Shown here one piece after another: positions 1-19,134 of a DNA stretch of 64,000 nucleotides. Position numbers and translations under genes: made by a program. The stretch covers positions 19,454,315-19,518,314 of the forward strand of contig OZ038454.1 in NCBI GenBank assembly GCA_964036195.1. The letters are read 5' to 3'. This stretch comes from Sphaerolaimus hirsutus. Its lineage: Eukaryota > Nematoda > Chromadorea > Monhysterida > Sphaerolaimidae. Under the pieces are notes generated by a model. It was given only the letters and a program-made list of their open reading frames with translations, did no database searches and was not told the DNA's origin. The stretch's first letter is position 1, and each line of letters begins with the position of its first letter.

Positions 1-159
1 AATAGCTCATGCAAAGCGTGCCGCACTAAATGATAGCGTGAACCCCTATGAACTGGGGGGGGTAAGGATTCTGTACTTACAGGACCCTACATCACCGCCC
101 TGAGCCAGAAATGCTGCGAATATGGGGGGGAGCGTGCTGAGGGAGCTATAAATCCCTCA

Positions 160-681
160 GTGTGGATCAAACAGTTAGAGGTAGCACTATATTCACTTTG
201 TATTCCAAAAAAGAAGTGGCCCTTGTGTCTGTCACTTCGCTTAAAAGGTGAACCCCTTAGGTGGTTGGCAGGGGTAGATGATGCAACTAGGGCTAATTAT
301 CAAGAGCTAAAAAGGCAATTTTTACTGACTTATGAGAACACAGAAGTGCAAATGCGGGCACGAGATGAACTTTCTCGCACAAAACAACTCAAAAGTCAAT
401 CTGTAAAGGAATTTTACCATATTTTAAGGGACATGCACGCATCTGCATTTGCACATCTGGATGAGATGACTAAAGAGCGTGATTTTCGCATACTGTTTGC
501 CAACAGTATATCCCCCCAATTGCAAATTTTTTATAGGACCCTATCGCCAGCTGAACAAAACCAACCATTTCATACTCTGCTGGAGCGCTTATCCACCTAT
601 GAAAGCCAAGTGACAGATACTTGTGCACCACTGTCATTTGAGGGTCGCCCTGTGGCCGTGTGGCCGGTTTGTGTTGAATAG
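160..681 (+). CDS. gag: Gag, capsid-like part (retrotransposon gag family)
   Basis: About 170 residues resemble the retrotransposon Gag capsid family: an early W..L motif, LKGEPLRWL, a QELKRQF segment, and SVKEFYHIL followed by an F..SISPQLQ block. This part would form the particle shell. The open frame uses a GTG at 160, which is not a likely start, so the true N-terminus is upstream or in a 5' exon; a possible acceptor (CTTACAG) lies at about 76-82. The frame stops at 679-681. The next part of Gag is in another frame from about 737. Joining CAA at 609 (donor GTGACAG) to GCA at 737 (acceptor AATCAG) is in phase. A ribosomal frameshift or a real lesion would also explain the change. Confidence 0.75.
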   Translation: MWIKQLEVALYSLCIPKKKWPLCLSLRLKGEPLRWLAGVDDATRANYQELKRQFLLTYENTEVQMRARDELSRTKQLKSQSVKEFYHILRDMHASAFAHLDEMTKERDFRILFANSISPQLQIFYRTLSPAEQNQPFHTLLERLSTYESQVTDTCAPLSFEGRPVAVWPVCVE

Positions 682-736
682 GCGGCGGTTTGAAAGGCGC
701 CCATATGGAGACCACGACAATGCCTCCACAAATCAG

Positions 737-1427
737 GCAAATGACCCCCTTAGTCAGCTGGAACGCCCGGCAGAAGTGTTGCAATCTGCGCGTACGGTCC
801 ATAAAAATGATGAAAATGAATTTGTCCCCAGGGGTGTGGACATAGCAAAAAAATTGGATGAAATTTCTGGCGAGATAAAAAAAGGCACCGAAAGGGTTGA
901 TAAATTAGAAGCCCAGTTTCGGGATGATGCCTCGGAAATGAGGCGGGCCATCTTAGAAGTAGGCCGAAAAGCGGCGGAAAATTCCACGCAGGTGCGTGGG
1001 ACAACTTTTCGCAGGGGGGGGGGAGGAAATCCAAATTTTCCAGGAAGTTCCCCAAGCCGAAACTTCCAAGGAAGTTCCCCTAATCGAAATTTTCAGAATA
1101 TGAACCCAGGTGGTCAAAATCAAAATTTAAATTCGAGCTTCACTTCAGCTCCCCCCAGTTCACCTAATTACGCCCAACAAAATTACCAAAACCAACAAAG
1201 CATGCGCGGCACCGGGTGGAACGCGCCATATCGCTCACAGGGGCCAGGTCCAAATACGGGCCAGGGTGCAGGTCCACCGCGCACATGCTATCAGTGCGGC
1301 CAAGTAGGTCACATTGCCCGTGCATGTACAGCCCCGCGCGCACAAAATAGGCAACCTGAGCGAGTGAATCATGTTTATCACTCTCTGTCAGCATTAGCCG
1401 CGGGGGTAACTTTTGAGGGTGACAAGG
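737..1427 (+). CDS. gag: Gag C-terminal part with CCHC zinc knuckle
   Basis: The frame open from 623 encodes a coiled-coil-like stretch (about 790-980, with heptads around ISGEIKKGTERVDKLEAQF), then Asn/Gln/Gly/Pro-rich repeats (NFPGSSPSRN / NFQGSSPNRN) and one nucleocapsid-type CCHC knuckle, C-x2-C-x4-H-x4-C, at about 1286-1327. The knuckle would bind genomic RNA. The frame runs without a stop into the unrecognised segment. Near 1,419-1,428 there are phase-1 GT sites that could be spliced to an acceptor at 2,510 (TTACTCAG). That intron would be 1,092 or 1,083 bp, again a multiple of three. Confidence 0.7.
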
Positions 1428-2510
1428 GTGAAGGGAACACCGTGGAACATTTGTTTTCCATTATTTCGGGGGGGTGCAAAAACTCTACAAAAATAGTATA
1501 CAGCACCAAATATGGCGCAAAGCGGCGCAAATGTTCTCATTTGGCCCTAAAGCCAAATGCTGTTGGGAATAGTGAGGAACAGGAACTAGAAAAAAATAAA
1601 AAAATAAAAAAATTGTTCCCTTCGCCCTCCAACCCACAGAGTGTGAAGCGGCCGCAGATGTCTGAAATAGGTGGCGCAATGCAGGTGGTCCCGTTGAAAT
1701 TGGACTCATTGCAGTTGGGCCCAATACGCACGGTCCCAACGGAGCGTGCAGGTGCGCAGAAAAGTGCAACCGCGGCGCCAGACGCGGTATGTGAAATTAC
1801 CTGCGGCAGCGAAAATTACTGCGCACAGGAAAATGTGAAAATAAGTGAAATTAATAAAGTAAAGGAAGGTAAATTTGTATTAGATCTATCCCTTTGCGCG
1901 AACCTGTCAACTAAAGCACAAGCAGAGAGGAATAATGACAAAGATAATGAAATTAGTCCAGTTGATAAAATTCAGTGTCGTGTTGACAAGTCCACGCAAT
2001 CGCCGGAAGGCAAAAAACGGGGATGCATCACGCCCAAAATTGTAAATATTTACGAAGTCCAAAATGAGAAAATGAATAAAAAAACAGCCAAAATAGGTGA
2101 AAGTCATGATACATTTGTGGATGGGGAAATACCAAGTCCGGGGGACTGCGCGAAAACAAGAAAATACCAGGTACATCATGGCGTTTGCGCCATAAAAAAG
2201 GGCCCACCCAAAGTAATGCTACCTGTGCGCACCGGTGATATGCGCACGCAAAAAATGCAGTCGCGGCACGGCGGCGGCGGCCGCGCGGCGCGTGAAATGA
2301 GGCGGCGGCCTAAGCAACCGCAAATGAATGGATCCACACAGCCGCCAGCTAACTTGTCTCGGGCGCGCTGCGAATACAATGGGGGGTGGAATTGCAGACA
2401 GATTTTATCTATCTCATATACCAGGTATTCTGGGCAAAGAATACCTGTGTTTCCCGCGATTGCGCTCTTATATAGCGCGCTGGGCATCTTAACTTATCAC
2501 TCTTACTCAG
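1428..2510 (+). other. Stop-free linker between zinc knuckle and exon block; probable long intron
   Basis: This kilobase is open in frame 2 but has low-complexity, Lys/Asn-rich coding potential with no recognisable domain. It ends in a good acceptor (CTTATCACTCTTACTCAG, 2493-2510). It could be a retained-intron part of the polyprotein or simply intron; I see no other feature in it. Confidence 0.45.
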
Positions 2511-5500
2511 GCTATCTTGAGAAGCATAAAATTGAAAAAAATATGGAATCAGGAAGGCCCCAGTCCCCGGACTTTTTCGAGCCGCGCCCTAATTCACCTG
2601 CAAATCCGATGCTGGATCAAATGATCCATGCAGTCGACCGCTTGTCGACTGTTGACGAAATAGTGCAGTCACTGGAAAATGCGCACCGCCCGCCACGCCT
2701 AGTGCCAGGTAAATGTACTGCTGCGTGTGAATTAAGTGGGTTTTGGAGGCGCTTAGGTAGGGCGCTGGGCCGGAAAATGTGTGGCGGAAAAGGGGTTGTT
2801 GCAAAAGTAAAGTTTTGTGGTAGCAATTTGTTCGGAAAGGAAAATGGAATAGATGCTAGTAGTATAAAAGAAATTAATAATAATAAATGTCACTTAAATC
2901 TAGGTCCTAAAATTATACATGAATTCTGGAGCGCACCTAAAAACAAGGAAAAATTCGGCGCAGGGTCCAGCGACATGGCCACGGCCTGGGACAACAGCGC
3001 GGCCGAAATACTGGCCAACCTGTTCGACGACGCCTCGCCCGAGGTGTTCGCCGAGTACCAGCGCGGGCGCGCGTTGGTCACGCCCGAGCCCGGCGTGCCC
3101 CAGCCCGAGCTCGGCATGCCCGAGCCCGACACGGACGCCGGCGGCGCCTGGAGCGGCATGTACGAACCCATGTCGCCCGACCAAACGGACGAGGCGCGTG
3201 TGTCAGTCACGCACGTGCAGACGCCCGCGGCGTCAGAGATGGCTGTGCCGGTGACGGCGGAGCCGACCACAGGGACAGGTGTGCATGGATACATGCCACA
3301 GCAGCTGTATGCGGGCGAGATGGGTAAGTACAGCGTAGCAAATAAAATTGTACGAAAACTTTCGGGGGAAGGTGAGTATTGTTGTAAGAGCGAAAGCATG
3401 ATGAAAGACAAGAAAATACATATAAAATCAAATTTTGATAAGAAATTGCATGTGAAGGCAAATTTTGATAAGAAATTGCACATGAGGGGAGAGGCTGGCA
3501 AAAAAATGCACTTTGAAAGAAATTTTGAAGTGAGAATTGATTGCAAAAAGGTGTCCCTTATACATGAACTGACTTTTACAGGGCCGGTGTCCAGCGACAT
3601 GCCGATGCCCGGGCGCACGCTCGAAGGGTATCCTACCCAGGGTACGTGCACTTCTTGTTGCGGCCCTAGCTCGACGCAAAATTCGGTTGCAAGATGTAGT
3701 GCACGTGTAGGTATTGACGTTGCGGGCACGTGCTACATCGTGGCGCCGGACGTAGGGCGACGCGTGGGGCGGCAAGCCGAGGGCGCCGCACCGGCACAGG
3801 CTGGAGGTGAGTTCCGAACGCTGCTTTATGAAAACCTTTGGCTTCATAAGGCACGTCTTGGACTCTCAGATCCAGACAGCGGCGACACGGCGCAGGCGGG
3901 GCTGGATGAGCCCGCCTCATTGGCAAAGAGGGTCAGATCGGCGCCGACAGATGCTGCGGGCATTCCCCGACTACTTCCGGGCAGGAGGAAGAGCACCAGG
4001 CCGAAGAGGGCGACCCGCCCGCCCCGCCAGTACATGTCCGCCGAGTCGGGCAGCAAGTCAATCGCAGAGAACATGCCGCTCAAGGCCAAAAGTAAGCCAT
4101 TTTGGAAGTCTGCATTTGTTTTGGACACATTTGAAAAGGTGAAATTGGCTGTTGGAAAAGTAGGGTGTCTAAATAAGGGAATTTCAGAAATAAATTACTC
4201 AAAAGTTTACGGGGAAGATTTTCCGCCACGAATGGCTTACTTTTGCGCCCATGCAAATTCTGGAAACGAGTGTTAAGGGGGCACAGATAAAGCGGCTAAA
4301 TAATTACAAAAATGCCATGAATTTACGCCCCATTGACCACAATAGACGGGCCCACGTGAATAGGACACGTTTTGCATTTCTTACCACAATCTTATCGGGG
4401 CAGATCTCTAGACGTAGCGCGGCGCGTTTTCGCGGACACGTGCATGCTATTCATGGCGCGCAGACGCGGCAATCTGCGTGCAATAGAAAACTAATAAATA
4501 AATATCCAAGTGAAATGACTCATGAAGGTTTATTGCACGTTGATCACCGGGAAATAGCGTTGGGCAAGCGCCAAAATTTAGTACACATTCTAATACTGTC
4601 AAATGAATGGCCTAAATACAATGAAATAGTTTTTACGGTGACTCACAAACGATGGAAAAGGGGGGCATACCTAGGGGGGTGCAAAATCTGCAAAAAAGAA
4701 AATACACAGCCAGTGAACATTGCTAAGTTATGTCGCGGGGGCCCACTTAGTCATTTATGGTACCCTGTGCAAATATGTTACGCAAAAATGCCCTCAAAGG
4801 GAGTGGTAAATGCGTGTGAGAGAGAAAAATGCCTATACAAGTTTATACATAGCTCGTTAGGCGAGAGATGGCGCCGGTTTTACAGGAAATTTGGCAAAAT
4901 AAATAGAAAATACAAACTATTCAAGGCGCAAAAGTGTTGTGTAGCAAAGGCGAGTTTGTTAGATGAAATAAATAAATACCGCGCATATGTAAATCCGTTA
5001 AGTGATAAAGAAAGCAAAATTGCAAAAGTAAAGTGTCATTTTTCCTACTTGAAATATGATAAAATAAAATGCAAGCTAAATGCCAGTAACCCAAAAACCC
5101 CTCCCAAAAACGCCAACTCAGAAGGTGCCTGGCTTTCCAGGCAAGCGCAAGAGCAGCGGGTCGTCGTCGACCGCCAGCAGCAGCGGCATGCGCCGCGACA
5201 CCAGCAAGAGCAGCGGCCCATCCGCGCACCCGATTTCGGACGCGATCGCCGCCGGGCTTGGCGGAGAGCCAGAAGTGATGTCGCGCCGCCTGCGAGCCGA
5301 AATGATTGCGACAGCTGCAGGTACAAGAGTGATTATTGTCGACTATCGCTACGATGTGCGTGTGGTGTTGCCATAAATGGGCACAGTGCCAAGCCGCAGG
5401 TTCTGATAAAAGAAATTATGAAAGGGAAGCTGAACCGGGGAAGTGCATGTTATCTTATGAATTGCGGGGGAGGAGAATTGAGGTCAACTAATGGGGAGAA

Positions 5501-8450
5501 AGTTTCAAACAAATGTTTGGAAAGCAATTGAAGTTTGATAAGATAAAATCATGGCCAGGGGTAAGACTTGGTGCAAAAAAGAGGAATGAAACCGGAAATG
5601 TAGGGGTTCTGTCGGCTTGGCACGTCCCATTTAGGCGACAGCCATTAATGGCAACTCGTGGGGATAGTTACCTGGGGTCTTGGTACTGTATAGTGACATT
5701 ATGGGGGTCAGGGAGCAGATTCGTGAAATTCCTTCGCTCAGGTAACTATTTTGAGGTAGGTAAAGTGCCTTTCATGAGGATAATTTTCGCTATGAATAAA
5801 ATGGGAGCAAATGATGATGGGGTTTGCTTACGGTGTCTCTTACTAACATCTGAAACAAACTCAAAGTCCCCAAAACAGCGCGCTAACCCATACATGTTTT
5901 ATGGCAATTTGTCCTGTCCAAAAAAATGTCCAAAGAAAACCGAAGTCCACGAAATGGGGCGGTCGTTCGAAGTCGGGGTCGAGAACGGCGTCCTGGCAGT
6001 GTCCGGCGAGGCACACACGCCAGCCAGATGTCTGAAAAGAAAGTATGGATATTTGGGAATGAAAACGTTCTGTCCGGGTACTTTTGAAACGGTGCCCCCT
6101 GAAACTTCAAGCACCCAAGCTCCTTTCCAATCCAAAATGGCACACACTTACAAAAAATGGCTCGCAATGACGACCGGGTGCCAGTTCAGCTGCTACTCAC
6201 CTTTTGCTCATCATTTCCAAGTAATCGGCACAAGCGGCGGTCGAGGTATACTGCACTGTCGCAAGTGTCGCAGTTTCGATCGTTTTCCAACGACGCAAGT
6301 TCTCGGTTTCAGGGCCGAGAATGATTATCAATCTATTTTGGAACCTCGCCAAAACAGCGCGGAGGTGACACTTGTGCCAAGTGTCCGGCAGGTGACCAGC
6401 CGAGAACCTGCGACGTTGGGAAACAGGTGGACTCAAAATAGCGCTGTAAATGGAAAAATGGGAGTGTTTTGGATTATTGTCTCGTTGGTAAATAGGCCCC
6501 CCATGACTTCTCACTTGACTCCTCAAAACACCGAAGAACATAAAAATTTCGGTGAAACTTTAGCGAATAGGGGCCGAGGTACACAGTTGTACTTAGGCCG
6601 GGTTTGGCCTACACACTCGTGCATACGGCCGGAAAATAATCTGCACCAATGTATATTTGTTGAAAAGGATGTCCATGAGGATCTCCTTTATGTGAAAACA
6701 GGGTGTCCAGTGAAATCTGACAGTTTTGTATGCGACTTTGCATGTGTGAGCAAAATTAGATGTTCGGGAAAGTTTTTTTTGTATTTTACATTCGGTCCCG
6801 CTGGACATCGGGAAACCCCCTGGACATCCTCTTCGCTGAGTTTCTTTCGAGTGGCTAGTGAGATGGAGATTTTCGTGAAAACAGCTTCTGCACTTACAGA
6901 CAAGTCTGCCGAGCCGTCAGAACTTGCCTCGAGCACAGGAGAAATACAGCATGAGGAGCCTATTGCTGAGGAAACTGTTGATGCCCTGGACGTGGAGCCT
7001 CCGCCCAATGAAGAAGGGCCCAGGATCAAGATGAGGGACACGCCTGGGAGGCACCCAGCTGTCCCACGGCCGATGAGCATGGCGCCACAGCGGGTCGACT
7101 CAAGTAATGTCCCGTTCAATTTGAATTACGAGATGGAATACGGACACCACCATGGTGAGTACATGACGGAAGCTGGGTCTAGGTCGGTAGAGGTGTTACC
7201 TGAGTGGAGGGGTTCAGTTGACGAAGTTAGTAAATTACAATTGTTTAAAATGACCCTTTTATCCGATCACGGGGTGTTCTTGAGGCAAAAAGTAAGTAAA
7301 ATAAGGGGTTCTCATGTAGCTAGAGGGGAAAGAAAGGGAAAGTTGTTTCGCAAAGTTTATGCTTCACGCGCAGCGGTGCGGGTCCCGCATCGACCGGTGC
7401 CAGTCACCAATTTGGTGTTCGACGCCCCGGTCCCGATTTTTCGCCATGTGGTGGGCCTCCCTCTGGAGTACTATCAAGCCACATATTTCCCATTGGCATG
7501 CATGCTGGGCGGGTGTGGCACCGACAGAATCACCTTGGCGTCGGGCGACATTGACCTGACAATCCCCCATCTGCCAGAGGAGCCGCTACCTTTCAAGGAC
7601 TTTTCCGTCAATTTTGTCAACTCAAAGCACCGGCTGTGCCACATTACTGGCGCCGATTGCTATTGGTGGGGAGTGAATTTGATGGTGGCCTCAGCCATGG
7701 GGAATGACCATTTGATTAGAGGTGAGTATCAGGAAGAAAAGCATACAACTATATGTGAGATTTGTGGGTGGATAAATAGTAGGAAGTCATTCCCAAATAT
7801 TTCAGACTTGCTGCTGCGCCCGCCCATGGTGTTGGGGCGCATTCCCATGGTGTGCACTGAGCACCAGTACTTCTTTCTGGTGAGACCGACAGACATCCTC
7901 AACAAGACGCCGGGGTCCGGCGTGATGTGCTTCACGTATTTGGACTGTGTGGAGCACTTAACCATGTGTCACACCTTGAAAATGACGCCTGTGACAGTCA
8001 CAGCGGCCGTGGAGGCGCTGAACGGTGAGTATTCAAATATGGAGTTGTCCACTGACCTAGGTAGGGAATTTGGCACTTTGCCAGATATCACCAGTGTTTT
8101 CTTTTCCTTTCCAGCTGTTCTAAAGAGTGAAATTGTACCCAAGAGTGTGTCCAAGTTGGTGTTGAGGGACAGTATTGAGAAGTGTGCCCACAACATGGCA
8201 CTGGCGTTGCGTTGGCGGGTGGCCCGCGCAATTTCCATTGCCATTTACAACAGGTATCCAGTCAGCACACACAGAATGACATTTGGGGTGAGCGTTGAGC
8301 AATTAAAGGTCATTGCCACAGAGAATAAGGTGCTGAGGGTGGTCAACTTGCCGGATGGTGACAAATTTGCCCTAAAGTCCCGGCAGATGGCATATGTGGA
8401 CCCGCTTTTGTTTGACCCGCAGTTCAAACAAAGGGCGGCGGGCCAGGAAA
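2511..8450 (+). CDS. Unrecognised multi-exon protein between gag and env of the retroelement
   Basis: Exons inferred from splice sites and phase: 2511-2708, 2964-3323, 3582-3641, 3756-3806, 3870-4091, 5141-5320, 6900-7154, 7374-7721, 7806-8024 and 8115 onward. Every junction is phase 1 (G|GT...AG|NN). An internal ATG at 2543 could start the protein. The N-terminal half is acidic and Pro-rich (VTPEPGVPQPELGMPEP), then basic and Ser-rich (KRKSSGSSSTASSSG), and looks disordered. The C-terminal half from 7,374 is hydrophobic and Cys/Trp-containing and looks globular. I recognise no family. Disordered acidic protein, then globular protein, then glycoprotein resembles the P-M-G order of mononegaviruses, but that is only an analogy. 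The exon at 5141-5320 is read in a frame different from the long unspliced ORF, which supports splicing. Confidence 0.6.
2709..8114 (+). other. Seven short phase-1 introns, all multiples of three and stop-free, plus two long ones
   Basis: Short introns: 2709-2963 (255 bp), 3324-3581 (258), 3642-3755 (114), 3807-3869 (63), 7155-7373 (219), 7722-7805 (84), 8025-8114 (90). Donors are GTAAAT, GTAAGT, GTACGT and four times GTGAGT. Acceptors include TTTTACAG, GACTCTCAG, ATATTTCAG and CTTTCCAG. All are phase 1, all are 3n long, and none has a stop in the frame of the flanking exons. Two long introns, 4092-5140 (1,049 bp) and 5321-6899 (1,579 bp), are not 3n one by one but sum to 3n. The frame changes of the unspliced ORF lie inside them. 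Both long introns look featureless apart from GC-rich patches near 5,930-6,030. Confidence 0.65.
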
Positions 8451-8488
8451 ATTTGGTTGGTTTGGCGTATGTTTTGCTTTTATTAGGT

Positions 8489-10645
8489 ATGTGGAAGGTG
8501 AGAAGTAGGGCGATCTGGTTCGTGTTACTCTTGTCATTTGTGACATGTGTAGGGGCTGAACCCCCCTTGCTGCAAGTCTGTCCCAAACCAACTGGGGCAT
8601 GGTATCTAGATTTACCCGAAATACCCACGTGTAATTTGTATAGCTCCACTTTGTTCGGCGAGTCACAGTTGTCACCAGTATATGACGTGTCTGTGACAGT
8701 GTATGCACATAGACGTCGCCCAGTTTCCGCCAACGCTACCTTTTGTCAAGCTAGAAGGCATGAAGTAACTACATGTACTAATGCCTTGTTTTCACATTAC
8801 ATCTACGAGTATCATGACAGTTATGTGCAAATGTCGATTGAGAACTGCGCTGAGATGTATCATGCAGTGTTGTCTGGTGACCTACAGTCACGAGGGATAA
8901 AACAAATAGAACCGATGGTGTGGTCAACTATGCATAGTATTGATTTGCAGTTCCCCACCTGGAACGATTGCTTCACTCAGCATGTCGACAACTTTGTGAT
9001 GACTAAAGGAACAGTATCGACATTTGACAATCAACGGCTCATTACTGATTTAGACTCTGCACCCACATGCAGCCCAGCTGCGGGGCGATGCACAAGTAGC
9101 AGGGGTGTATTATTTTGGGAACCGTCAACGCTGGCGCCTGCATCGTGTCCATTTGAGCTTGTAGGAAGTTTCCCAGGGAAAAGACAAAACGAAACAGTGA
9201 TTTTAATTCATGAACAGAGCGCTTTCACAATTAAGGGAGGTCCTGTGCACATTCAGTGCTTGGATCCGGCGGTATACCTAACTGATCAAGGTCCCTTATT
9301 GGCAATTTTACAAATAGATAACTCATCTACCGAGAGTATGTGCCAAATAATGTTTAAGAAGAAATGTGCGTCAACCATAAGAATGACTTTTGCCGAGTTT
9401 TGGAGTGAAAATTTAACACCGAATGCCGCTACGCAGCACCAATTCATTTACCAGGTACTTACGCAACAAGCGCACCAGAATTTCGAAACATTACGTCACC
9501 AAATATGTGTATTGGCGCGAAGTAATGCCTTGATGGTCAGGGCATTAGCGCACATCTCACCAGTAGCCGCGGCACGTTTGCTATTAGCTGATGAAAACAT
9601 TAATGCTGAATACACTGGTGATGTATTGTCTGTCACGGCTTGTCACCAGGTACAGCCTGACCGAATTTACATGTCACACAGGGTGAATGATACCTGTTAT
9701 GACATGATGCCCGTCCGTGTGCATGGGAAATTGTTATTTAAGATACCAGGAACACTTGATTTAGTGGAACATGCAAATCAAATTCCATGTTCTCAACTGC
9801 AGTCGCCAGTGTTCAAGACAAACAATGGGACCTATTTAGCGTTAACAGATGGTAATATGGTTAAGGTTCGCATGCATCAAATACCTGCATTCGTGAACCC
9901 GAAATTTTTGACAGATGGAATTAGATTTAATAGGACACTCATTAGGCCTGGAATGGCAATGGAAAATGCGATGATTTATGCTAATGTGCGCAGTTTGCAC
10001 ATGCGTCAAGCCGAAGCTAGGGAGAAATTAGATAGACTGATTCATTACACCAGTCTGTTTTCAATTGATAGCGCTCATACAGCCAGCATGTTGCATGGAC
10101 AGGGTCTAGAACACATGGTCACGCATGCTGGCGAGCTACTATTAAATGCGTCAGGGCGTGTCATCGACCATGAGTTTGATTTAGTGCACATGATAACTAC
10201 TAGTGCAGTGCCGAAAGCAATAAGGGGACCTATGCAACTAATTCTGAACATTCTGTGGATAATTTTTGTGACAGCCATTTTGTTGGCAATCATTTATGCA
10301 TGCGTACGCTATGAGTGGTTTAGAGCAGCAGTTATTTCTGCGTGCAAGTGGCCCTTTGTGATGATTAAGTCTTTTGCGACATGGTGTATTCATCAATACA
10401 ACATACATGTGAGGAATGCTAGGTGGAGGATGAGTCGACAAAACGATGAAAGTGCTGACAGGTTACAATTGCCGAGGCCAGATACTCTTGACTTGCCTCC
10501 AAGGCAGGCAGGAATTAGTGGAATTGCGGGAAATAGAATTCGTATACCCAGAATACGTTTAGGACCACAGTTGTTGCGCACGTTGCATGAAACACGCGCT
10601 GCAAATGACGCAGATGAGGCAGTTGATCCTCAAGTACTTGGTTCC
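8489..10645 (+). CDS. env: Envelope-like transmembrane glycoprotein
   Basis: The ATG at 8489 begins a signal peptide (hydrophobic core AIWFVLLLSFVTCVG), followed by about 580 residues of Cys-rich ectodomain with several N-x-S/T sites. A transmembrane helix follows at about 10,236-10,305 (LILNILWIIFVTAILLAIIY), then a basic cytoplasmic tail. This is the layout of a type I viral fusion glycoprotein. The pattern recalls glycoproteins captured from negative-strand RNA viruses (chuvirus-type) by other retroelements, but I cannot prove that family by eye. There is no stop before or after it: the reading frame continues from the upstream segment and into the protease. Release would need proteolysis, splicing or an internal start. 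Its place upstream of protease and RT is atypical. Confidence 0.7.
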
Positions 10646-11400
10646 ATGCGCGCACGACTTCCCAGGCAAGTGTCATTTCTAGTGTTGTTGACACTTCTGT
10701 CGTTATTCACGCCAGCACACTGCTTCCAGACAGAAGAGAGTGACTGGTTTGGATCACTAGCTAAATTTGCAGTGACGCATTGCTGGAAAATTGCAGCTTT
10801 CGCGTGCACAATGCTTGTTGTGATGGTGAGTAGGGCGTTAGACAACAAGCCAGTTCAAGCAGAGAAAATCACGCCGCCAGTGTCCGAGTGGAGTCATTTC
10901 GAAGGCAGAATGAATACCACCCTGCGGAGGGCAAGTGACCAGTGGTCATCGTCTAAGAGGGGAAGTGTCCAGCGGTCATTTTCAGAGAAAAGGAATGCCC
11001 AGTGGTCATTCTCAAAGGAAGTGAGTGACCAGTGGTCTTTAGAGGAAGCTGGTGTAGGTGTGTTTGAACCACACCCAGAGTTTAGTTTGCGTTCCAAGGC
11101 AATAAAGTGCACGGCAACTTTATTAAGTTATTTTTTCTTTACTGAAACCACGGAGCCGGTGTTAGAGCAAAACATGAATCTATGGGGAAAACTGGAGGGT
11201 GAGACATGGTTACAGAAATTGGACAGGGTGAGGGGCCTGTTACTGCAGAGAAAAGGACGTAGGAATGTGAAGAAACATAGAGTCACCAAAATCACAAGTA
11301 CTGTATGCTCTAGAGGGCGTGTCAATGAATGGCACTGGCGGATGCACATGATTTTCGCCACTACGTGCATTCATCAATTAAATTCCTTGCCAACGAGTTG
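10646..11400 (+). CDS. Second signal-anchor segment and decapeptide repeat linker
   Basis: An ATG at 10646 precedes another signal-like stretch (VSFLVLLTLLSLFTPAHCF). A second hydrophobic helix ends near 10,830 (IAAFACTMLVVMV). It could be a small membrane protein or an internal env subunit. From about 10,930 to 11,045 there are four imperfect repeats of about ten residues built on S-x-Q/R-W/R-S (DNA core AGTGACCAGTGGTC). The function is unknown. The frame continues without a stop into the protease. Confidence 0.45.
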
Positions 11401-11409
11401 TAGGCTGGC

Positions 11410-11740
11410 GTCTACTGGTACAGGGGTGGTGTTAGGTGCAAATGGCATGATAAAAGATGTCGAAGTGCATTGTATCATTGACACAGGAGCGTCCATGTCA
11501 TGCTTTAATAAACGATTAATTGACAGGCTGAAAATTCCATACAAAAGCACACAGATAACCATCACGGTGGCAGACGGAGCTGACATGGTGCCATTGGGTA
11601 CATGTGACATTCAGCTCGCTATAGACGGCACATTGTTTAATGTGCACGCATTAGTTTTGGAGGGAATCACCAGTGATATATACATTGGCTTCAAAACTTT
11701 GAAACAATGGGGCGACTTCCAAGTCACCTTTTATCGTAAC
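11410..11740 (+). CDS. pol: Retroviral-type aspartic protease domain
   Basis: The active-site motif IIDTGAS lies at 11,474-11,494 (DTGA at 11480-11491), followed by the hydrophobic flap region and a later GFKTLKQWG that fits the second conserved strand of retropepsins. The enzyme would act as a homodimer to cut the polyprotein. It sits in the same frame as env and RT. The N-terminal boundary is arbitrary because the frame is continuous. Confidence 0.8.
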
Positions 11741-12699
11741 AATGAGAATAAGAATTTGGATATGGGAGAAATTAAGTTTGTGACGGGAAAGAAAATTCGT
11801 TTTAATGTACCCAAAGAGCGGGGAGTAAATCACATCTTGCTCATGCATACTAAAGACAGAGTAAAATTGAAACCGCTTGCTGTCACGTCAGTGACAGTAT
11901 ACGCGCCTGATGTCACACAGGAATTCTTGACTATGGTGTTGAAGGATAGGAAATTAGAAAAGCATTATGTAGGAGCTCCGATTGATAGGATGATGAGAGT
12001 ACACAGGATAAAAATTTACCCCACTCTGGTTGATTTAAGTAGACAATTTGACAGCGAGCGAAAGTGTTTTATGCTTTCATGCTCAATTCCAGTCTTCAAC
12101 CCAAATAGAAGTGACATCACTGTGCCAAGTGATAGACCCTTGATTAAGGTTACTCAACTAGGCGGAGAATTGCATAGGGCACTTGGAGTGGTGCCGGAAA
12201 AGCAGATTTTGATTTCTGCACCTACCAAACCGAACAATTTGGGTGATCAGTCCACTCCAGTGTATGTGACTGGTCACACTACACTGAATGGGACACAAGT
12301 CCCAGTAATACTGACGCCACAGTATGGAGATCATTTTAGGAAACTAGTGATGACTGGGCAGGAGTGCCAGCAACGAATAGGAGAGTGGCTAGACTGTTTG
12401 CAGACAATTCATCCCGAAGCAAAATTGTCAGCAATGATATTGAATGAAAACAGTGTGAAGCAAGTTTTCCCAGAGTCAATAGCCGCTATGACCGAGGACG
12501 CAGGAGAGAAAAGGGTTTCTGAGCTGAAAAAGGCTGCAGAGGCGGCCAGAAAGGATTCACCGAATGCTGTGGCTACGGTGACAGTGCAGCCTGATCTTGA
12601 AGGAGAAAATAGACTAAACTTGCCAAACTTGGCGAAACCTATGGTGCCACAACTCAGTTTGCAGGAAAGACATGAAATCATCAAACGGGACGCAAATTT

Positions 12700-13640
12700 T
12701 AGTGACACAGTTTTGAACGAGGAACAAAAGCAGGAGTTTTTAGAGATGTTGTTGCGCTATCATGACGTTTTCGTCTTAGAGTTGGCCAACCGCAGCTCTT
12801 GCAGTGCCCTTGTGGCCGACATCCGGCTTAAGGATGAAAATCATCCTGGCTTTCAAAGTCGGCCTTATCCTATCAGTTTTTTTGAGGAAAAAATCCTAGA
12901 TCATTGGCTAGTAAGGCAAATATCCTTAGGATTAGCTGAATTTGGACTCAGTCGCTTCTCGAGCCCGGTTTTCCTGGTTCGAAAGCCGACGGCAGAGCCG
13001 GAAAAGGTGCCAACAATTAAAAACTGGCGCACAGTGTTTGACCTCAGGAAAATTAACTCGCTGACCCGTTTAGAGCAAGGGAACGTAACACCCCTTCAGC
13101 AATTGTTAGAAAAACTCCTGTTAGGAGTGGTCTGGTCCACTTTTGACGGATTATCCGCCTATGATATGATTAAATTGTCAGAGAGTAGTAAGGATTTATT
13201 CGCAATTTCGACTGCGCGTGGGGTTTTAAAATTTAATTCTTTACCACAGGGGAGCAGCTTGAGCACATCAATATTTTCTCTCGCCATGACCGTGATCTTT
13301 TGGAACAGTCGAAAAACTCTAACGTACGTAGATGACGTGTGCACGGTGTCTGACAAGGTGGAGGACCATGTGCATGACGTGGAAGATGCTTTGAAGCGTT
13401 TTGCCCGCTACAAATTCCGCATTTCGCTGAAAAAAACCGTTTTTGCGGCCAAACGCGTAAAAATGCTAGGGCAATACATCAGCAGAGAGGGTAGAGAGAT
13501 GGACAAGGAAAAGGTGGAGGCAATCTGTAAATTGCCCCCACCAAAAGACAAAACTGGTGTGCGCAGTTTCCTAGGAATGGCAAACTGGCACCGAAGCTGG
13601 ATCAAAGACTTTGCCATCCACATGAGGCACTTGAATAAGC
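12700..13640 (+). CDS. pol: Reverse transcriptase domain
   Basis: Palm and finger blocks are in order: FSSPVFLVRKP, WRTVFDLRKIN, an FDGLSAYD catalytic Asp block, LPQG at 13241-13252 and the catalytic YVDD at 13325-13336, then the GQYISREG and FLGMANWHRSWI thumb blocks typical of Ty3/Gypsy RT. It copies genomic RNA into DNA using a tRNA primer. All catalytic aspartates are present and no stop or frameshift is seen across the domain. Confidence 0.93.
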
Positions 13641-14130
13641 TTTTGACAGGAAAAGATAATCAACCCTTTGTATGGAATGATGACGCACAAGAAGAATGGC
13701 AGTGGCTGAAAGACCAGCTCATGAAGGCGCCAATTTTGGCCGCTCCAGATTACAGTAAAAGTTTTGAGCTGCGCACAGACGGCTCAAAGAAGGGCATTTC
13801 TGGAATTTTGTCGCAGAAGGCCGATGGAAATAGACACAACGTCATTGGGTATTATTCTAGAGTGCTGTCCAAACAGGAGCAGCGCATGGCCAGTTACGAT
13901 TTCGAAATGCTCGCCATTGTGTCTTCCTTAATTCACTGGCGCAGCATTATTTTTTGTTACAAAGTCGAAGTGCACACTGATTGTGCGGCAGCATGCTATT
14001 TGTTAAGAGATAAACATGCACAGAATCCCAGAGTCGCTAGGTGGTCATTAGCAATTAGTTCCTTTCCTGGGGTTAACATAAAATACACCCCGGGAAAAAC
14101 TAATCCCGCAGACGTGTTGTCCAGAGAGTT
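13640..14130 (+). CDS. pol: RNase H domain
   Basis: It follows RT directly. Catalytic residues are visible in ELRTDGSKKG (Asp codon at 13778), YDFEMLA (Glu) and EVHTDCAA (Asp), with a C-terminal NPADVLSRE block. It degrades the RNA strand of the RNA:DNA hybrid. It is continuous with RT and intact. Confidence 0.9.
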
Positions 14131-14559
14131 CTGCGCTGAAGACATTTCAAAACAACCAGAAATGGTACCAGATCCATCAGAGGAAATATTGAATGACGAC
14201 CGCATGGAGATTTGCGGAGAGGATTGCGGAGATTCTTGTGAGCTACAGCAGACTGTGAAACATCACGTGCAAAAGCACCTTTTGCAGGTGATGCAGACTA
14301 GGAGCAGAACGAAGGGCGTCACTAAAGACGCTAGTCAGGTGTCTGCGGCGCCCATGTCGACGTTAGATGTTCCAGGCAATGCTGGGGTGCAGCAAGGAGC
14401 ACCAGCACCGGCGGTGAAGGTGCCTGCACCAAATGTAGTGGTGACAAATGACCAAGGCGTCAGCCACTCACTAGTCATTCCAAACGACTATAATGTTGAT
14501 CAGACGCCAGATCAAATTGCTAGAAGTCAATTGCCCAGCCCATCGGATTATGACAAAGA

Positions 14560-15856
14560 AAATTTTTCTGACTTTTTAGAAGAAGACGGAATAGTGCAAA
14601 AGTTCCGAGACGGACAGGCGGCCGATGAATTTTGTGCCGCAATGAAGGAATTTTTAGTAGATGGAAATTTACCAGTAAGTTCTACCTTGGCCAGACGGGT
14701 GGTTCTGGCGGCACAACAGTACGTTATGGAAGATGACCTACTGTATTACTTTGATAAGCGCAAACCAGGCCTGGAACCAGCTTTGCTGCTGTATGTGCCC
14801 ACCGACATGAGGCGTTCGGTGATGGCACTGCACCATGCATCTGGCTGGGGCTCACATCAAGGTGCAGCGAGAACTTATCAGAGGCTCTTGCATTGTTTTT
14901 ATTGGCATAATGCGTACAATGATGTGGTGGATTACATTCGTAAGTGTGCAAAGTGTTTTGCTCATAAGGGGCAGACTGGACAGGTGGTGTCACCGACAGG
15001 CCAGTTACCACAAGCTGACAGGCCTTTTGATGTATTGTATTTTGACATTTCGAATGTAATGCATTACAGTGCCACATGCCAATACAAGGCTGTAGTTACA
15101 GCGATATGACCGTTTTCCAGTTATCCATTCGCTGCGCCCTTGTCAGACATGCGTACGATAACAATCGCGCAGGCACTTATGACACATGTTTTTGCATTCA
15201 CAGGTTTTCCCAGGGTATGTATTAGTGACCATGGTGCCAATTTAATGGCATTACGGGAATGTTTCAAGTTTCTGCGTGTAGGCCACAGAAATGTATTGCT
15301 GGCCAACCCACAGGCAAATAAGGTAGAGAATTGGCATCGTTTCAAAACATCACTAGGTATTATGATTACGCAATACGCTAGGAGTCATGAGAATTGGGAC
15401 GAAACATTACCAATGCTGATGCTGGCCCTTAGGACCAGTCATTCTGCAAGTATCGGCATGAGTGCTTTTGAGGTGGTGTTTGGCCACAGACCAAATTTGT
15501 TTTTTCTTCCCGATGCTTTGAGTCGACCAAGTCTTGCTTTACGGACCAATGACTCTGCCATTGGGTTCGTCAGAGAATCAATTTACCAAGCGTGGAAAAC
15601 TGCAATTAAAAATAAATTAGAATATGAACAAACTACCGCTAAACAAGTTGAGTTGGAGAAAAATAAACTGCAAGTAGGCGATGCAGTTTATGTGAGACAA
15701 GTCTTTGTGCCAAAAGTAGGGCAGACCAGTAAATTTCTGCCTAAACTTCTGGGACCACTAGTAGTCCGCCGTGTTTTAAATAGTGCAGCATATGTAGGTG
15801 CGATAGGAGAACCAGATCGCCCTGCTCAGTTGATTCCATTTAGGAGGATTTGTAAG
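14560..15856 (+). CDS. pol: Integrase, interrupted by one in-frame TGA
   Basis: An HHCC zinc-binding module (HHASGWGSH ... CAKC) lies at about 14,832-14,960. The catalytic core has the first Asp in YFDISN (about 15,041), the second Asp in CISDHGAN (about 15,224) and the Glu in NKVENWHR (about 15,322). A GPL module (KLLGPLVVRR, about 15,745) follows. A TGA at 15107-15109 lies between the first and second catalytic residues, and the same frame continues on both sides. So this copy carries a single nonsense codon, or depends on readthrough, or the base is an assembly error. After FRRICK (15,856) a GT donor could splice to 15,948, where the frame again matches. Confidence 0.88.
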
Positions 15857-15947: not shown

Positions 15948-17959
15948 CCATTCGCGGTGCTGGCAGTCACTCAGGCGCTGCCAATCCAGGTCACTCAGGC
16001 AGGAGCCCTGGTGGGCATGGTGGAATGTCACCGGTGGCCTGCCCTGTCCAACGAGATGATAGAACTGCATCATTGCGTGCAGCAGTACGAAGTGCCGTAT
16101 TTGAAGAGGCTGTGGGTCCGCGTGCGCGGGGGAGTGCGACCATGGGCGATAGGAGTGCGGCCATTTCTGACGAGTTTTCACTCCCGCAGCACCCGCTGGC
16201 CAGTGGACAGCAAAGATGCATTTGGGGAATCGAACCTGTTGTACAAGTTACCAAGAATCAGTCTGGACCCCAGACAAACCCTGTTTGGCCAGGTGATGAA
16301 TGTGGGCGCACCGGCGCCGGGAACCAGCTCTGGCAGGCAGGAGGTGCTGATGCACCCGTGGCCGGCAGATGGGCTAGCTTCTGATGAGGTGGACAGGGAG
16401 ACTCCTCCCATTCGTCCACAGCCACTGGGAAGCACAGCAGTGGTGGGTTTTTTATGTGTACATTGTAGTATTTTCCGTTTAGATAGTAAAAGAAATGTGT
16501 TTTGTGAAGAAATTTTTTTTCAATTTCCAAGGTGTCCATATTGATTCCTAAATAAGTCACAAACTTTCAGCCTCTCAAGCCGCCGAGGCCCATGGACAAT
16601 GACCGCAGGTATGTGAAGGCATTTTCATGCCATAGGTGTGGCCAAAGGGGTCATAAACAGCATGAATGCAGAAATAATAGGTATTGTCCTAAATGTAAGG
16701 TTAACACCCATAAGGCTGGAAATTGCATATTTGGTGCCACTGAAGATCGTGAAGCTCGCTATTCACGTAGTAAAAATAATATTCAACAATTAGCCCAGGA
16801 AATTAAGACTGAAGTAATGAGTGCGGTAATTTCTCAATTAGCCCCATCTAATCAGTCATTTCCACAGAATTCTAGAGGCCATGTGCAAGCGCGCGGCCAA
16901 AAACGTCGAGGCAATGTATAAGCTTGCCTTGGACCAGGGCAATTGGAAGTCCCATGAAGTGAGCGCCTTGGTGACGGCGGGCAAAATCATCCCTGCAGAC
17001 GAGTTGCATACCACTGACTTTATGTGTGTTTAGTGTGGTTTTGTTCAGTAGTGTTTGTGGTGGTGTTTTAGATGTAACTTTGTGTTTTTTTTTGAAAGGA
17101 GCTGGAGCTGAGAAAATTTTATACCTTTTTTTCATTGAAATTTTTCTCAGTTCGGCGACGGTTACAGGCACTATGGGGTTTTTTTTTGTTTTTTTTTTTA
17201 AATTTTCTCTTTTATTTTTTTTTACCTATTTCTATACATTCCATTTTATTAAAATAAATTACATAAAATCTTAAAAACCCAAATTCAATTTTATTCTTTT
17301 ACACATATTTACACATAATTTCATATATAAAACAACTTAAAAATCATTCTACCCTAAAATTCAATCATAATGTGGGGTACACATTAATACGAAAGTATAT
17401 TGGAAGGTGTAAGTTTATTTTTTTTGTTGTGTTAGTAGTAAGTGTACGCATTTGTTAGAAATTTTATAAGTTTTCACTTTAGTCAAGCTTACACTTATGT
17501 ATCGTCTACCGCATTCCATCATTCATACCCACATAGTGTAAGGCGCCCTACCACAATAGACAATAGCTCCTGACCAATGTCCATCTACAACACCAACACA
17601 ACAACTACCATTTAGTTCCAGGAAAGCTGTTTGCTGACATTCATTGTTGACTTTGTCGCAGCGAGGAGGCATCATTGACCACAGCACTGAAGCCAGAAGA
17701 TCATCAGCCAGCTGTCGTGCGCACCAGTTTGTCAATGATTCCAGTGAGATCAGTTGCCAGAGCTTATGCACAGAGCGTTCAGACGCCGCATTTATTGGCC
17801 ACGGGCAACAGATTGTTGACAGCTGCCAGACAGACTTACATCCCAGTGCCAATGACCGAATCAGTGCCACCACCCTCAGCAATTTCGACCAGACATCCAG
17901 CAATCAAATTCAGGAGGAAAACCAACAGCAGTTTTTGGGCGGAGACCGGAGGAGAGTAG
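15948..17959 (+). CDS. Spliced 3' accessory region downstream of integrase
   Basis: Four exons with matching phases are proposed: 15948-16442 (acceptor TTTTTTGCAG), 16571-16608, 16868-17023 and 17662-17959 ending in TAG. Intron lengths are 128, 259 and 638 bp. The first exon can be joined in phase to the end of integrase at 15,856, so this may be a C-terminal extension of Pol, or a separate accessory gene. The product has many Trp/His/Arg residues, a Pro-rich middle, a helical segment (KNVEAMYKLALDQGNW) and a basic C-terminus. I recognise no family. Long overlapping open frames (to 16,384 and 16,544) come from reading through the introns. Confidence 0.5.
16571..16921 (+). CDS. Double CCHC zinc-knuckle ORF in a 3' intron
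   Basis: If the intron 16609-16867 is retained, the small exon reads on into a 110-residue basic protein starting at ATG 16592. It has two C-x2-C-x4-H-x4-C knuckles (about 16,628-16,669 and 16,685-16,726), a helical middle and a basic tail (RGQKRRGNV). It is a second nucleic-acid-binding module, separate from the Gag knuckle. In retroviruses such a knuckle belongs to nucleocapsid, so its place 3' of integrase is odd; it could have an RNA export or chaperone role. Function is inferred from the knuckles only. Confidence 0.6.
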   Translation, partial: PLKPPRPMDNDRRYVKAFSCHRCGQRGHKQHECRNNRYCPKCKVNTHKAGNCIFGATEDREARYSRSKNNIQQLAQEIKTEVMSAVISQLAPSNQSFPQNSRGHVQARGQKRRGNV

Positions 17960-18060: not shown

Positions 18061-18679
18061 TGATCCCATTATCCCATTATCTCGTTCAGTAGTAGGTAAA
18101 GTTTGGTTAAATTAAATTTTGTAAGTTTTCAGTTACTTGTGAGGCTAATTTTGTTTTTGGTTACGTGTACTAGTGAAGGAAGTTTTAAGGACCAAGTTTG
18201 TTTAAGGCCAAATTTTGTTCTAAGGTGTCTCAAATTGTCTTTCTTGTGTACAGTCATAAAAATTCAAAATCTCCAAAAAAATATTGAAATCTCATTTTGT
18301 TTTGTCTTTGCTCATTACTTGAACATTTTGCTCAGTTTACAATTTTAATCATTCCAAATTGTTTGAAGCAGTGGTATGCTTACTCATTGTGGCGTATTTA
18401 GGAATTTTAAATGTGTACGTAGTCAAGTAAGTGGTTGTGTAGTTTAGGTGTAGTATAAGCCCTTGGTACCCATTTCTTGTGTTTAGGAGTAAATTTCCCT
18501 TCTGTGTGGAACCAGAAGTTCTATTAGGGGGTGATCTATTGTATTGCTACTGTTGCCATGGTTATTAGGTGGTGATTTATGTTGGCACGTGTCCAAGAAA
18601 GTTGTTGACGTGGGTTATGGTAATTATCAGTTCAGACAAAAATATGGGCGTGGCAAGTTATGTGTGGGCGTGTAGCCCG

Positions 18680-18687
18680 TATAAAAG
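18680..18687 (+). promoter_or_regulatory. LTR TATA box
   Basis: TATAAAAG lies about 210 bp upstream of AATAAA, the spacing expected for U3/R of an LTR. Transcription would start near 18,710 (CATTCGGGGTTCGG). Confidence 0.6.
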
Positions 18688-18892
18688 AGAGCATCTGCCA
18701 GTCATTCGGGGTTCGGAACCGGAATAGTGAAAATACATCAAGCTAGCAAAGCTAAGCTGCAGCTGAAAATAGTAGCTGAAAGTCCAAGTGACTGGATTTG
18801 AGGAACCCGTATGCTTGGCAGGTGCTGTGGAAGTTCAGTGCCGTGTGATCCAAGTATTGTGAGTGTTTGATATATTTAAGTGTTTGACCATC

Positions 18893-18898
18893 AATAAA
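18893..18898 (+). terminator. LTR polyadenylation signal
   Basis: AATAAA in CATCAATAAACTTG, downstream of the TATA box. A second AATAAA is at about 19,001-19,006. Cleavage would follow within a few tens of bases. Confidence 0.55.
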
Positions 18899-19134
18899 CT
18901 TGTGCCAAGGGGCAACGACCGGCTGCGTTTGGCTTGCAAAGTAACTCAGCAACACGACATCGAACCTGCACTTCATCACGAGCGCTCAACCAAATCACAT
19001 CAATAAACCCACATGCATAACATCGCATGTCATCGGTGAAGTCGCCGGGTATCCTTGTCATCCTCCTGAAGTTCGTCGTAGTCAGAGTGGACGTTGGAAC
19101 CTGTAAAGGTGTAAGTCCAACTTCACATAGAAAA

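What the first reader, a model, noticed from the sequence alone, without database searches (positions are those of the whole stretch)
2709..8114. All seven short introns of the retroelement are phase 1, 3n long and stop-free
Introns of 255, 258, 114, 63, 219, 84 and 90 bp have credible splice sites. Each starts after the first base of a codon, is a multiple of three, and reads open. By chance all seven being 3n is about 1 in 2,187, before counting stop absence and phase identity. This suggests selection for both spliced and unspliced RNA to be translated, so one locus would yield two classes of polyprotein.
Basis: partly seen in the sequence, partly recalled or inferred. Interest (0 to 1): 0.9.

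Follow-up and report, generated by a model that had tools for sequence, protein, structure and literature searches.

The report
Retroelement introns kept readable throughout
A 21-kb virus-like mobile element, probably in an animal genome, has introns that drift freely in sequence yet rarely gain a stop codon or shift the reading frame, which suggests that its unspliced RNA must be translated straight through them.

Summary
The seven segments are where stated, 3n long, phase 1 and stop-free. Five are well-supported introns. The 114-bp one is not supported alone; it and the 63-bp one are most likely one 228-bp intron (3642-3869). Two long introns were left out: 4092-5140 and 5321-6899. These are 3n+1 and 3n+2 in nearly all copies, cancel, and leave the exon between them open in two frames.

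Across 21 copies the donor and acceptor of all eight introns are kept in 20-21. In the same four copies 17 of 19 intron indels are 3n, against 4 of 28 in the 3'UTR. Twelve of 21 copies read open through about 6 kb; 16 of 16 closer copies show no nonsense codon in the shared frame. Amino acids are not conserved: position-3 rate ratio 1.01 in introns, 3.91 in exons. One close copy lacks intron 7722-7805 exactly, most simply through splicing.

Best explanation: unspliced genomic RNA is translated end to end (gag-X-env-pol) so that Pol is made, while spliced RNA makes the X-envelope protein. Closest precedent: C. elegans Cer1. No RNA data were available.

The parts
52..681 (+). gag capsid-like part (Retrotrans_gag), frame 1; gag starts upstream of the window (L009)
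   Evidence: Pfam PF03732 E=4.2e-7; upstream gag ATG and leader
614..2510 (+). gag nucleocapsid (CCHC knuckle) and a following stretch 1381-2510 that is open but shows no clear codon periodicity
   Evidence: Pfam PF00098; periodicity of 1382-2509 P=0.13 against stop-purged null
2511..2708 (+). likely first coding exon of the spliced X-envelope mRNA: acceptor ending 2510, ATG at 2543
   Evidence: ATG kept in 20 of 21 copies; acceptor AG kept in the window copy, L040-L052, L053 and L054 but not in the 5 distant copies L055-L059
2709..2963 (+). intron I1, 3n, phase 1
   Evidence: GT-AG in 21 of 21, 3n in 20 of 21
2964..3323 (+). exon E1, GC-rich, coding
   Evidence: position-3 rate ratio 3.05
3324..3581 (+). 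intron I2, 3n, phase 1
   Evidence: GT-AG in 20 of 21, 3n in 18 of 21
3582..3641 (+). exon E2
   Evidence: position-3 rate ratio 8.67
3790..3885 (+). conserved hairpin at the end of I34; candidate signal present only in unspliced RNA
   Evidence: fold z=-4.2 against 200 mononucleotide shuffles; divergence between copy groups 0.08 and 0.01 at 3810-3839 and 3840-3869 against 0.14-0.37 in the other 30-base steps of 3600-3989
3870..4091 (+). exon E3
   Evidence: position-3 rate ratio 2.81
4092..5140 (+). intron B, phase 1, 3n+1 in 20 of 21 (the window copy is the exception)
   Evidence: GT-AG in 21 of 21; lengths 1030-1066; codon-position ratio 0.97
5141..5320 (+). exon E4, open in two frames: spliced frame (constrained) and unspliced frame (merely open)
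   Evidence: both frames open in 21 of 21; fast site is position 3 of the spliced frame
5321..6899 (+). intron CD, phase 1, 3n+2 in 18 of 21, hypervariable
   Evidence: GT-AG in 21 of 21; lengths; rates
6900..7154 (+). exon E5
   Evidence: position-3 rate ratio 3.81
7155..7373 (+). intron I5, 3n, phase 1
   Evidence: 3n in 20 of 21; 111 bp in 7 of 7 sister-subfamily loci examined
7374..7721 (+). exon E6
   Evidence: position-3 rate ratio 5.79
7722..7805 (+). intron I6, 3n, phase 1; exactly absent in copy L054 and in the sister-subfamily loci examined
7806..8024 (+). exon E7
   Evidence: position-3 rate ratio 4.76
8025..8114 (+). intron I7, 3n, phase 1
   Evidence: 3n in 20 of 21; 114 bp in 7 of 7 sister-subfamily loci examined
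8115..8482 (+). exon E8, start of the stretch leading into the glycoprotein
   Evidence: position-3 rate ratio 3.19
8483..10801 (+). envelope-like glycoprotein related to Monjiviricetes (chuvirus-type) fusion proteins, lying before pol
   Evidence: PF24664 E=2.5e-15
10802..15109 (+). protease, reverse transcriptase, RNase H, integrase zinc-binding part, same frame
   Evidence: PF13650, PF00078, PF17917/PF17919, PF17921
15110..16384 (+). continuation of the pol frame after one stop in this copy (integrase core expected; no Pfam match)
16592..16918 (+). 109-aa ORF with a weak CCHC knuckle behind a CTTTCAG acceptor at 16570; possible second spliced product
   Evidence: zf-CCHC E=0.017, below the family's cut-off
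18537..19134 (+). 3' LTR, 99.67% identical to the 5' LTR (upstream of the window, L009:6074-6671); TAAG target-site duplication

Best explanation
The element is a recently inserted Ty3/Gypsy-type LTR retroelement of about 21 kb with the unusual order gag - X - envelope glycoprotein - protease - RT - integrase. It makes at least two RNAs. In spliced RNA a leader donor joins the acceptor before ATG 2543 and eight phase-1 introns are removed, giving the X-envelope protein. The unspliced genomic RNA is translated from gag through exons and introns in one frame, because pol lies downstream of the introns in that frame and can be joined to Gag only that way. Hence introns are free to change except that they may not gain a stop or a frame change. 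Shown here: constraint on openness and frame in introns, absence of amino-acid constraint there, conserved splice sites, spliced-frame constraint in exon 5141-5320, and exact absence of one intron in some copies. Inferred: that the unspliced RNA is translated in order to make Gag-Pol, the leader splice, and the identity of the spliced product.
For: Unspliced reading 2543-8482 has 0 stops in 12 of 21 copies, against 105-137 in each other frame. Read codon by codon in the homologous frame, none of 15 closer copies has a stop (1,841-1,974 codons each; codons with gaps or insertions skipped), and their reference L049 is open, so 16 of 16; 2 of 5 distant copies (L056, L057) have some. Among 10 open copies 2,477 intron changes should have given about 77 nonsense codons; none is seen, though these 10 were chosen as open. 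Intron indels are 3n in 17 of 19 events, against 4 of 28 in the 3'UTR of the same four copies, Fisher P=4e-7; both exceptions are private to the window copy. Codon-position ratio is 1.01 (0.95-1.08) in introns and 3.91 (3.20-5.31) in exons. Splice sites are kept in 20-21 of 21 at all eight introns. Intron I6 is missing to the base in L054 and in 7 of 7 sister-subfamily loci. B is 3n+1 in 20 and CD 3n+2 in 18 of 21, and exon E4 is open in both frames in 21 of 21.
Against: No RNA or protein evidence. Nine of 21 copies, including the window copy, are not open end to end. In the window copy alone the seven segments have more codon periodicity than non-coding chunks of the window (13 of 1,000 reach it) and fall within the range of coding chunks; only against a stop-purged null is the excess not significant (P=0.15). 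Introns evolve faster than exon third positions (0.68 against 0.33 changes per site) and CD far faster than the 3'UTR (0.33 against 0.045). Simple neutrality does not explain that; recombination between copies may. The whole frame from gag ATG to pol end was not checked in other copies because the genome search stayed unavailable.
Confidence: 0.8

Rival explanations
1. The segments are not introns but ordinary fast-evolving linker parts of one large coding frame.
For: They lie in an open frame and their indels are 3n. In the window copy their periodicity is within the range of coding chunks.
Against: GT and AG are kept in 20-21 of 21 copies although the interiors of I1, I2, I5, I6 and I7 are only 43-60% identical to the window's in the five distant copies. 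I6 is absent exactly at its splice sites in L054 and the sister subfamily. There is no third-position excess and no codon periodicity beyond a stop-purged null. Exon 5141-5320 is constrained in a frame reached only by removing B and CD.
Confidence: 0.07
2. Openness is selected so that genomic RNA escapes nonsense-mediated decay; Pol is made from spliced X-envelope-pol RNA rather than from a gag fusion.
For: The frame after the envelope runs on into pol in the window copy, so spliced RNA would also reach pol. The Cer1 paper names decay of stop-containing unspliced RNA as a problem (PMC10309623, passages).
Against: It still needs ribosomes to pass all introns; it gives no means of packaging Pol with Gag. 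Not separable from the best explanation with sequence alone.
Confidence: 0.12
3. Intron-encoded peptides are under diversifying selection, for example as variable surface or decoy segments.
For: Introns change faster than exon third positions; CD is far more variable than the 3'UTR.
Against: All three codon positions change at the same rate (1.01), the sequence lacks codon periodicity beyond a stop-purged null, and blocks recombine between copies, which can spread old variants.
Confidence: 0.05
4. The 3n, stop-free introns are a chance result of picking splice sites inside an open frame.
Against: Copies show the constraint independently of how the introns were picked.
Confidence: 0.01

Closest known systems
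Cer1, a C. elegans Ty3/Gypsy LTR retrotransposon with the spliced CERV mRNA (PMC10309623 and PMC3315495, passages only)
   Same: One frame without a stop between gag and pol in unspliced RNA; consensus splice sites inside it that must be skipped; a multi-exon spliced product whose exons share the polyprotein frame except one exon in another frame.
   Different: Cer1 is 8.8 kb and its extra ORF lies after pol. Here eight introns lie between gag and an envelope gene that precedes pol, and their sequence shows no amino-acid constraint. Homology to CERV was not tested.
Exitrons (PMC4484396, passages only)
   Same: Stop-free stretches with splice sites inside a coding frame, often 3n.
   Different: Exitrons are described there as having higher GC than retained introns, weaker splice sites and a prevalence of synonymous change. 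Here the introns of the window copy are lower in GC than both flanking exons (3642-3869 and 5321-6899 judged from their parts), sites are conserved, and there is no synonymous excess.
Simple retroviruses with spliced env RNA (order gag-pol-env as stated in PMC10309623, passages)
   Same: Unspliced RNA for Gag-Pol, spliced RNA for Env.
   Different: There Env is 3' of pol, so the spliced-out part is gag-pol. Here env is 5' of pol and the small introns are read through.
Retrotransposons with a captured chuvirus-type glycoprotein (e.g. Anakin in Anopheles; PMC10084718, abstract and passages)
   Same: LTR element carrying a Jingchuvirales-like glycoprotein.
   Different: The passages seen report BEL-Pao and Gypsy associations; they do not describe gag-X-env-pol order or readable introns.

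Membership tests
Ty3/Gypsy LTR retroelement | Paired LTRs with target-site duplication | tested here: met
   598-bp LTRs at 99.67% identity; TAAG duplication
Ty3/Gypsy LTR retroelement | Gypsy-type gag, protease, RT, RNase H and integrase in the order PR-RT-RH-IN | tested here: met
   Pfam matches in that order; the integrase core itself gave no Pfam match. Several named relatives among 87 RT hits are Ty3/Gypsy-type; the top hit is an RNA-directed DNA polymerase of Parastrongyloides trichosuri at 33%. No tree was built.
Env-bearing retroelement (retrovirus-like) | Recognisable viral fusion glycoprotein in the element | tested here: met
   PF24664 E=2.5e-15 at 8483-10801
Env-bearing retroelement (retrovirus-like) | env gene 3' of pol | tested here: not met
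   Glycoprotein lies between gag and protease
Env-bearing retroelement (retrovirus-like) | env expressed from spliced RNA | not testable with these tools
   Splice sites conserved; no RNA data
Exitron | Stop-free, spliced part of a coding frame | tested here: met
   By comparison of copies only; splicing itself not observed in RNA
Exitron | Protein-coding with excess of synonymous change, high GC | tested here: not met
   position-3 ratio 1.01; GC of the window's introns below both flanking exons
Cer1 lineage | Homology of the spliced protein to CERV | not tested
   No CERV sequence was fetched

The most novel reading that the evidence does not exclude
A class of 'readable introns': spliceosomal introns with no amino-acid function that are nevertheless translated in every replication cycle as disposable linkers inside one gag-X-env-pol polyprotein of up to about 5,800 codons, with one 60-codon exon read in two frames and an intron-borne hairpin that marks unspliced RNA for export or packaging.
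Probability: 0.5. Interest if true: 0.93.

Novelty: new variant of a known kind. Interest (0 to 1): 0.86.

Why it matters
It separates selection against stop codons from selection on amino acids inside introns. It shows how an element with env before pol could use splicing without losing Pol. Stop-free 3n introns are reported to be counter-selected in host genes (Jaillon et al. 2008, as cited in PMC4484396, passage); here the opposite pressure is visible, and the copies provide a natural experiment on translation of unspliced genomic RNA.

Tried and rejected
Rejected: the 114-bp intron 3642-3755 as a separate intron (acceptor in 5 of 21). An exon at 5946-6029, which I first took for real from its GC content, was dropped although AG at 5945 is kept in 19 of 21: it evolves fast with no position-3 excess, and the donor it needs at 6030 is GT in only 15 of 21. 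Reading the frame changes of the window copy as programmed frameshifts: those in B and CD are private to this copy; those in gag were not compared. The list of 'lowest divergence windows' printed is not used: it leaves out stretches that the same call scored lower, so its sorting is faulty (probably empty windows).

Led nowhere: relatives in viral contigs (none), protein search for the X-envelope region (none at E<=1e-3 among 7,989 scored), Rfam and tRNA scans of the window (none), Pfam on five X exon pieces (none). Host not identified; only a weak nematode lean from the RT search. Literature searches listed no report that I recognised of amino-acid-free readable introns in a retroelement; of the papers listed I saw titles and starts of abstracts, and of four (PMC10309623, PMC3315495, PMC10084718, PMC4484396) passages; the library holds open-licence papers only.

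Full report
What is there. The window lies in a 348-Mb genome, probably of an animal (inferred from the element and its relatives; host not identified). Its first 19 kb are most of an LTR retroelement whose 5' end lies upstream: LTRs of 598 bp at 99.67% identity bound about 21 kb, with a TAAG duplication. Pfam finds gag, a CCHC knuckle, a chuvirus-type fusion glycoprotein, protease, RT, RNase H and the integrase zinc domain in the order gag - unknown X - envelope - pro - pol. One frame, 5492-15109, runs from the X region into pol. Of 87 RT relatives several are named as Ty3/Gypsy elements; the best is from the nematode Parastrongyloides trichosuri at 33%.

The observation. The seven segments are exactly as described. 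Pooled they have 0 stops in frame and 26 and 47 in the other frames. A Markov model expects 23.3. Their base composition by codon position exceeds that of most non-coding chunks of the window (13 of 1,000 reach it) and is within the range of coding chunks, but not above a null in which only stops are purged (P=0.15). Nor are the tested open stretches of B, C and D (P=0.87). GC-rich exons, downstream exons and pol are (no simulated value as large in 1,000), and so is the glycoprotein (P=0.002).

Copies. A DNA search with 7100-8482 listed 59 matches (a lower bound). I fetched the 20 best places besides the window, each over the equivalent of about 2400-8500, and aligned all 21. Fourteen copies are close to the window copy (88-94% over the search query), L053 is at 86%, and L055-L059 are distant (76-78%). 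Seven loci of a sister subfamily (L033-L039) came with the search, of 14 such places in the table.

Intron set. GT at the start and AG at the end are kept in 21, 20, 21, 21, 21, 20, 20 and 21 of 21 for 2709-2963, 3324-3581, 3642-3869, 4092-5140, 5321-6899, 7155-7373, 7722-7805 and 8025-8114. I first proposed an exon at 5946-6029, but it evolves at 0.33 with no third-position excess, so 5321-6899 is treated as one intron.

Frame. Lengths mostly vary in steps of three: I1 243 to 297, I2 114 to 288, I5 198 to 231, each with one to three off-frame exceptions. 3n holds in 20, 18, 21, 20, 20 and 20 of 21 for I1, I2, I34, I5, I6 and I7 (the exception at I6 is L054, which lacks the intron). B is 3n+1 in 20 of 21 and CD 3n+2 in 18 of 21; their sum is 3n in 19 of 21. 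In the same four copies the 3'UTR has 28 indel events, of which 4 are 3n; introns have 19, of which 17 are 3n, both exceptions being private to the window copy (Fisher P=4e-7). Without the window copy the counts are 1 of 14 and 15 of 15. Events are distinct gap intervals; the introns were read from the 21-copy alignment and the UTR from an alignment of four. Among the window copy and its 14 close relatives, six intron gap intervals that are not 3n are each private to one copy; two more (L043, L054) are parts of larger 3n changes; 46 intervals are 3n.

Stops. Twelve of 21 copies read open from 2543 to 8482. To avoid choosing on openness, I also read each copy codon by codon in the homologous frame, skipping codons with gaps or insertions: no stop in 15 of 15 copies against reference L049, itself open, so 16 of 16; among the distant copies L055 and L059 have none, L056 three, L057 two, and reference L058 is open. 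Among ten open close copies about 77 nonsense changes are expected in 2,477 intron changes; that set was chosen as open.

No amino-acid constraint. Changes per site at codon positions 1, 2, 3 are 0.683, 0.685, 0.689 in introns (ratio 1.01, 0.95-1.08) and 0.102, 0.068, 0.332 in exons (ratio 3.91, 3.20-5.31) in the ten open close copies, leaving out 3642-3869 and 5141-5320. Exon 5141-5320 changes fastest at position 1 of the unspliced frame, which is position 3 of the frame reached by splicing (0.142 against 0.032 and 0.052); both frames are open in 21 of 21. The block-bootstrap interval for that exon is wide, so this point rests on the point estimates and on base composition.

Splicing has probably happened. 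Copy L054 lacks I6 exactly between its splice sites and keeps the others; its junction letters match the close copies and not the sister subfamily, so transfer from the latter is unlikely. L033-L039 lack I6 in 7 of 7. In the search table the remaining 7 sister places show the same abutting pieces. The simplest reading for L054 is reverse transcription of a partly spliced RNA; for the sister subfamily loss or ancestral absence cannot be told apart.

Mechanism (inference). Because pol lies behind these introns in the same frame, a stop or frame change in any intron would cut Pol off from Gag. That accounts for selection for openness without selection on residues. It also bars phase-2 introns, whose GTRAG donor would put TRA in frame; it does not by itself choose phase 1 over phase 0. 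An origin by splice sites arising inside an already open frame fits the 3n and phase pattern, but exon 5141-5320 in a second frame needs a further step. Escape from nonsense-mediated decay is a rival that sequence cannot separate.

Against and unexplained. Introns change faster than exon third positions, and CD far faster than the 3'UTR (0.33 against 0.045). Pairwise divergences of four blocks correlate at only 0.06-0.36, so recombination between copies looks extensive and may have spread old intron variants; copies are then not independent witnesses. I have no RNA data, did not check the frame from gag ATG to pol end in other copies, and did not identify the host. The window copy itself is interrupted in gag, in B and CD, and once in the integrase region.

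Comparison. Cer1 of C. elegans is the nearest precedent: no stop between gag and pol, splice sites skipped in genomic RNA, and a spliced five-exon mRNA with one exon in another frame (passages). The parallel in the odd-frame exon is striking, but homology was not tested. Exitrons share stop-free spliced segments but are described by coding features that were tested here and not met (passages).

Noticed in passing
3790-3885: Hairpin at the end of intron 3642-3869; its 60 bases 3810-3869 differ by only 1-8% between copy groups, against 14-37% in neighbouring windows; possible export or packaging signal.
   Followed up: partly
16570-16918: CTTTCAG acceptor followed by a 109-aa ORF with a weak CCHC knuckle; possible second spliced product.
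   Followed up: partly
5321-6899 and copies L040-L052, L054: Blocks of the element seem to recombine between copies; intron CD exists in several old forms among otherwise close copies.
   Followed up: partly
own genome: Other RT loci lie in open frames of up to 4,837 codons, so very large polyprotein frames may be common in this genome.
   Followed up: no
L009 and 49-101, 611-679: The gag region of this copy changes frame at three places, one of them at a run of eight G; assembly error or private change, not compared with other copies.
   Followed up: no
1381-2510: Stretch after the nucleocapsid is open for over 1.1 kb with little codon periodicity, like the introns; copies were not compared there.
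   Followed up: no
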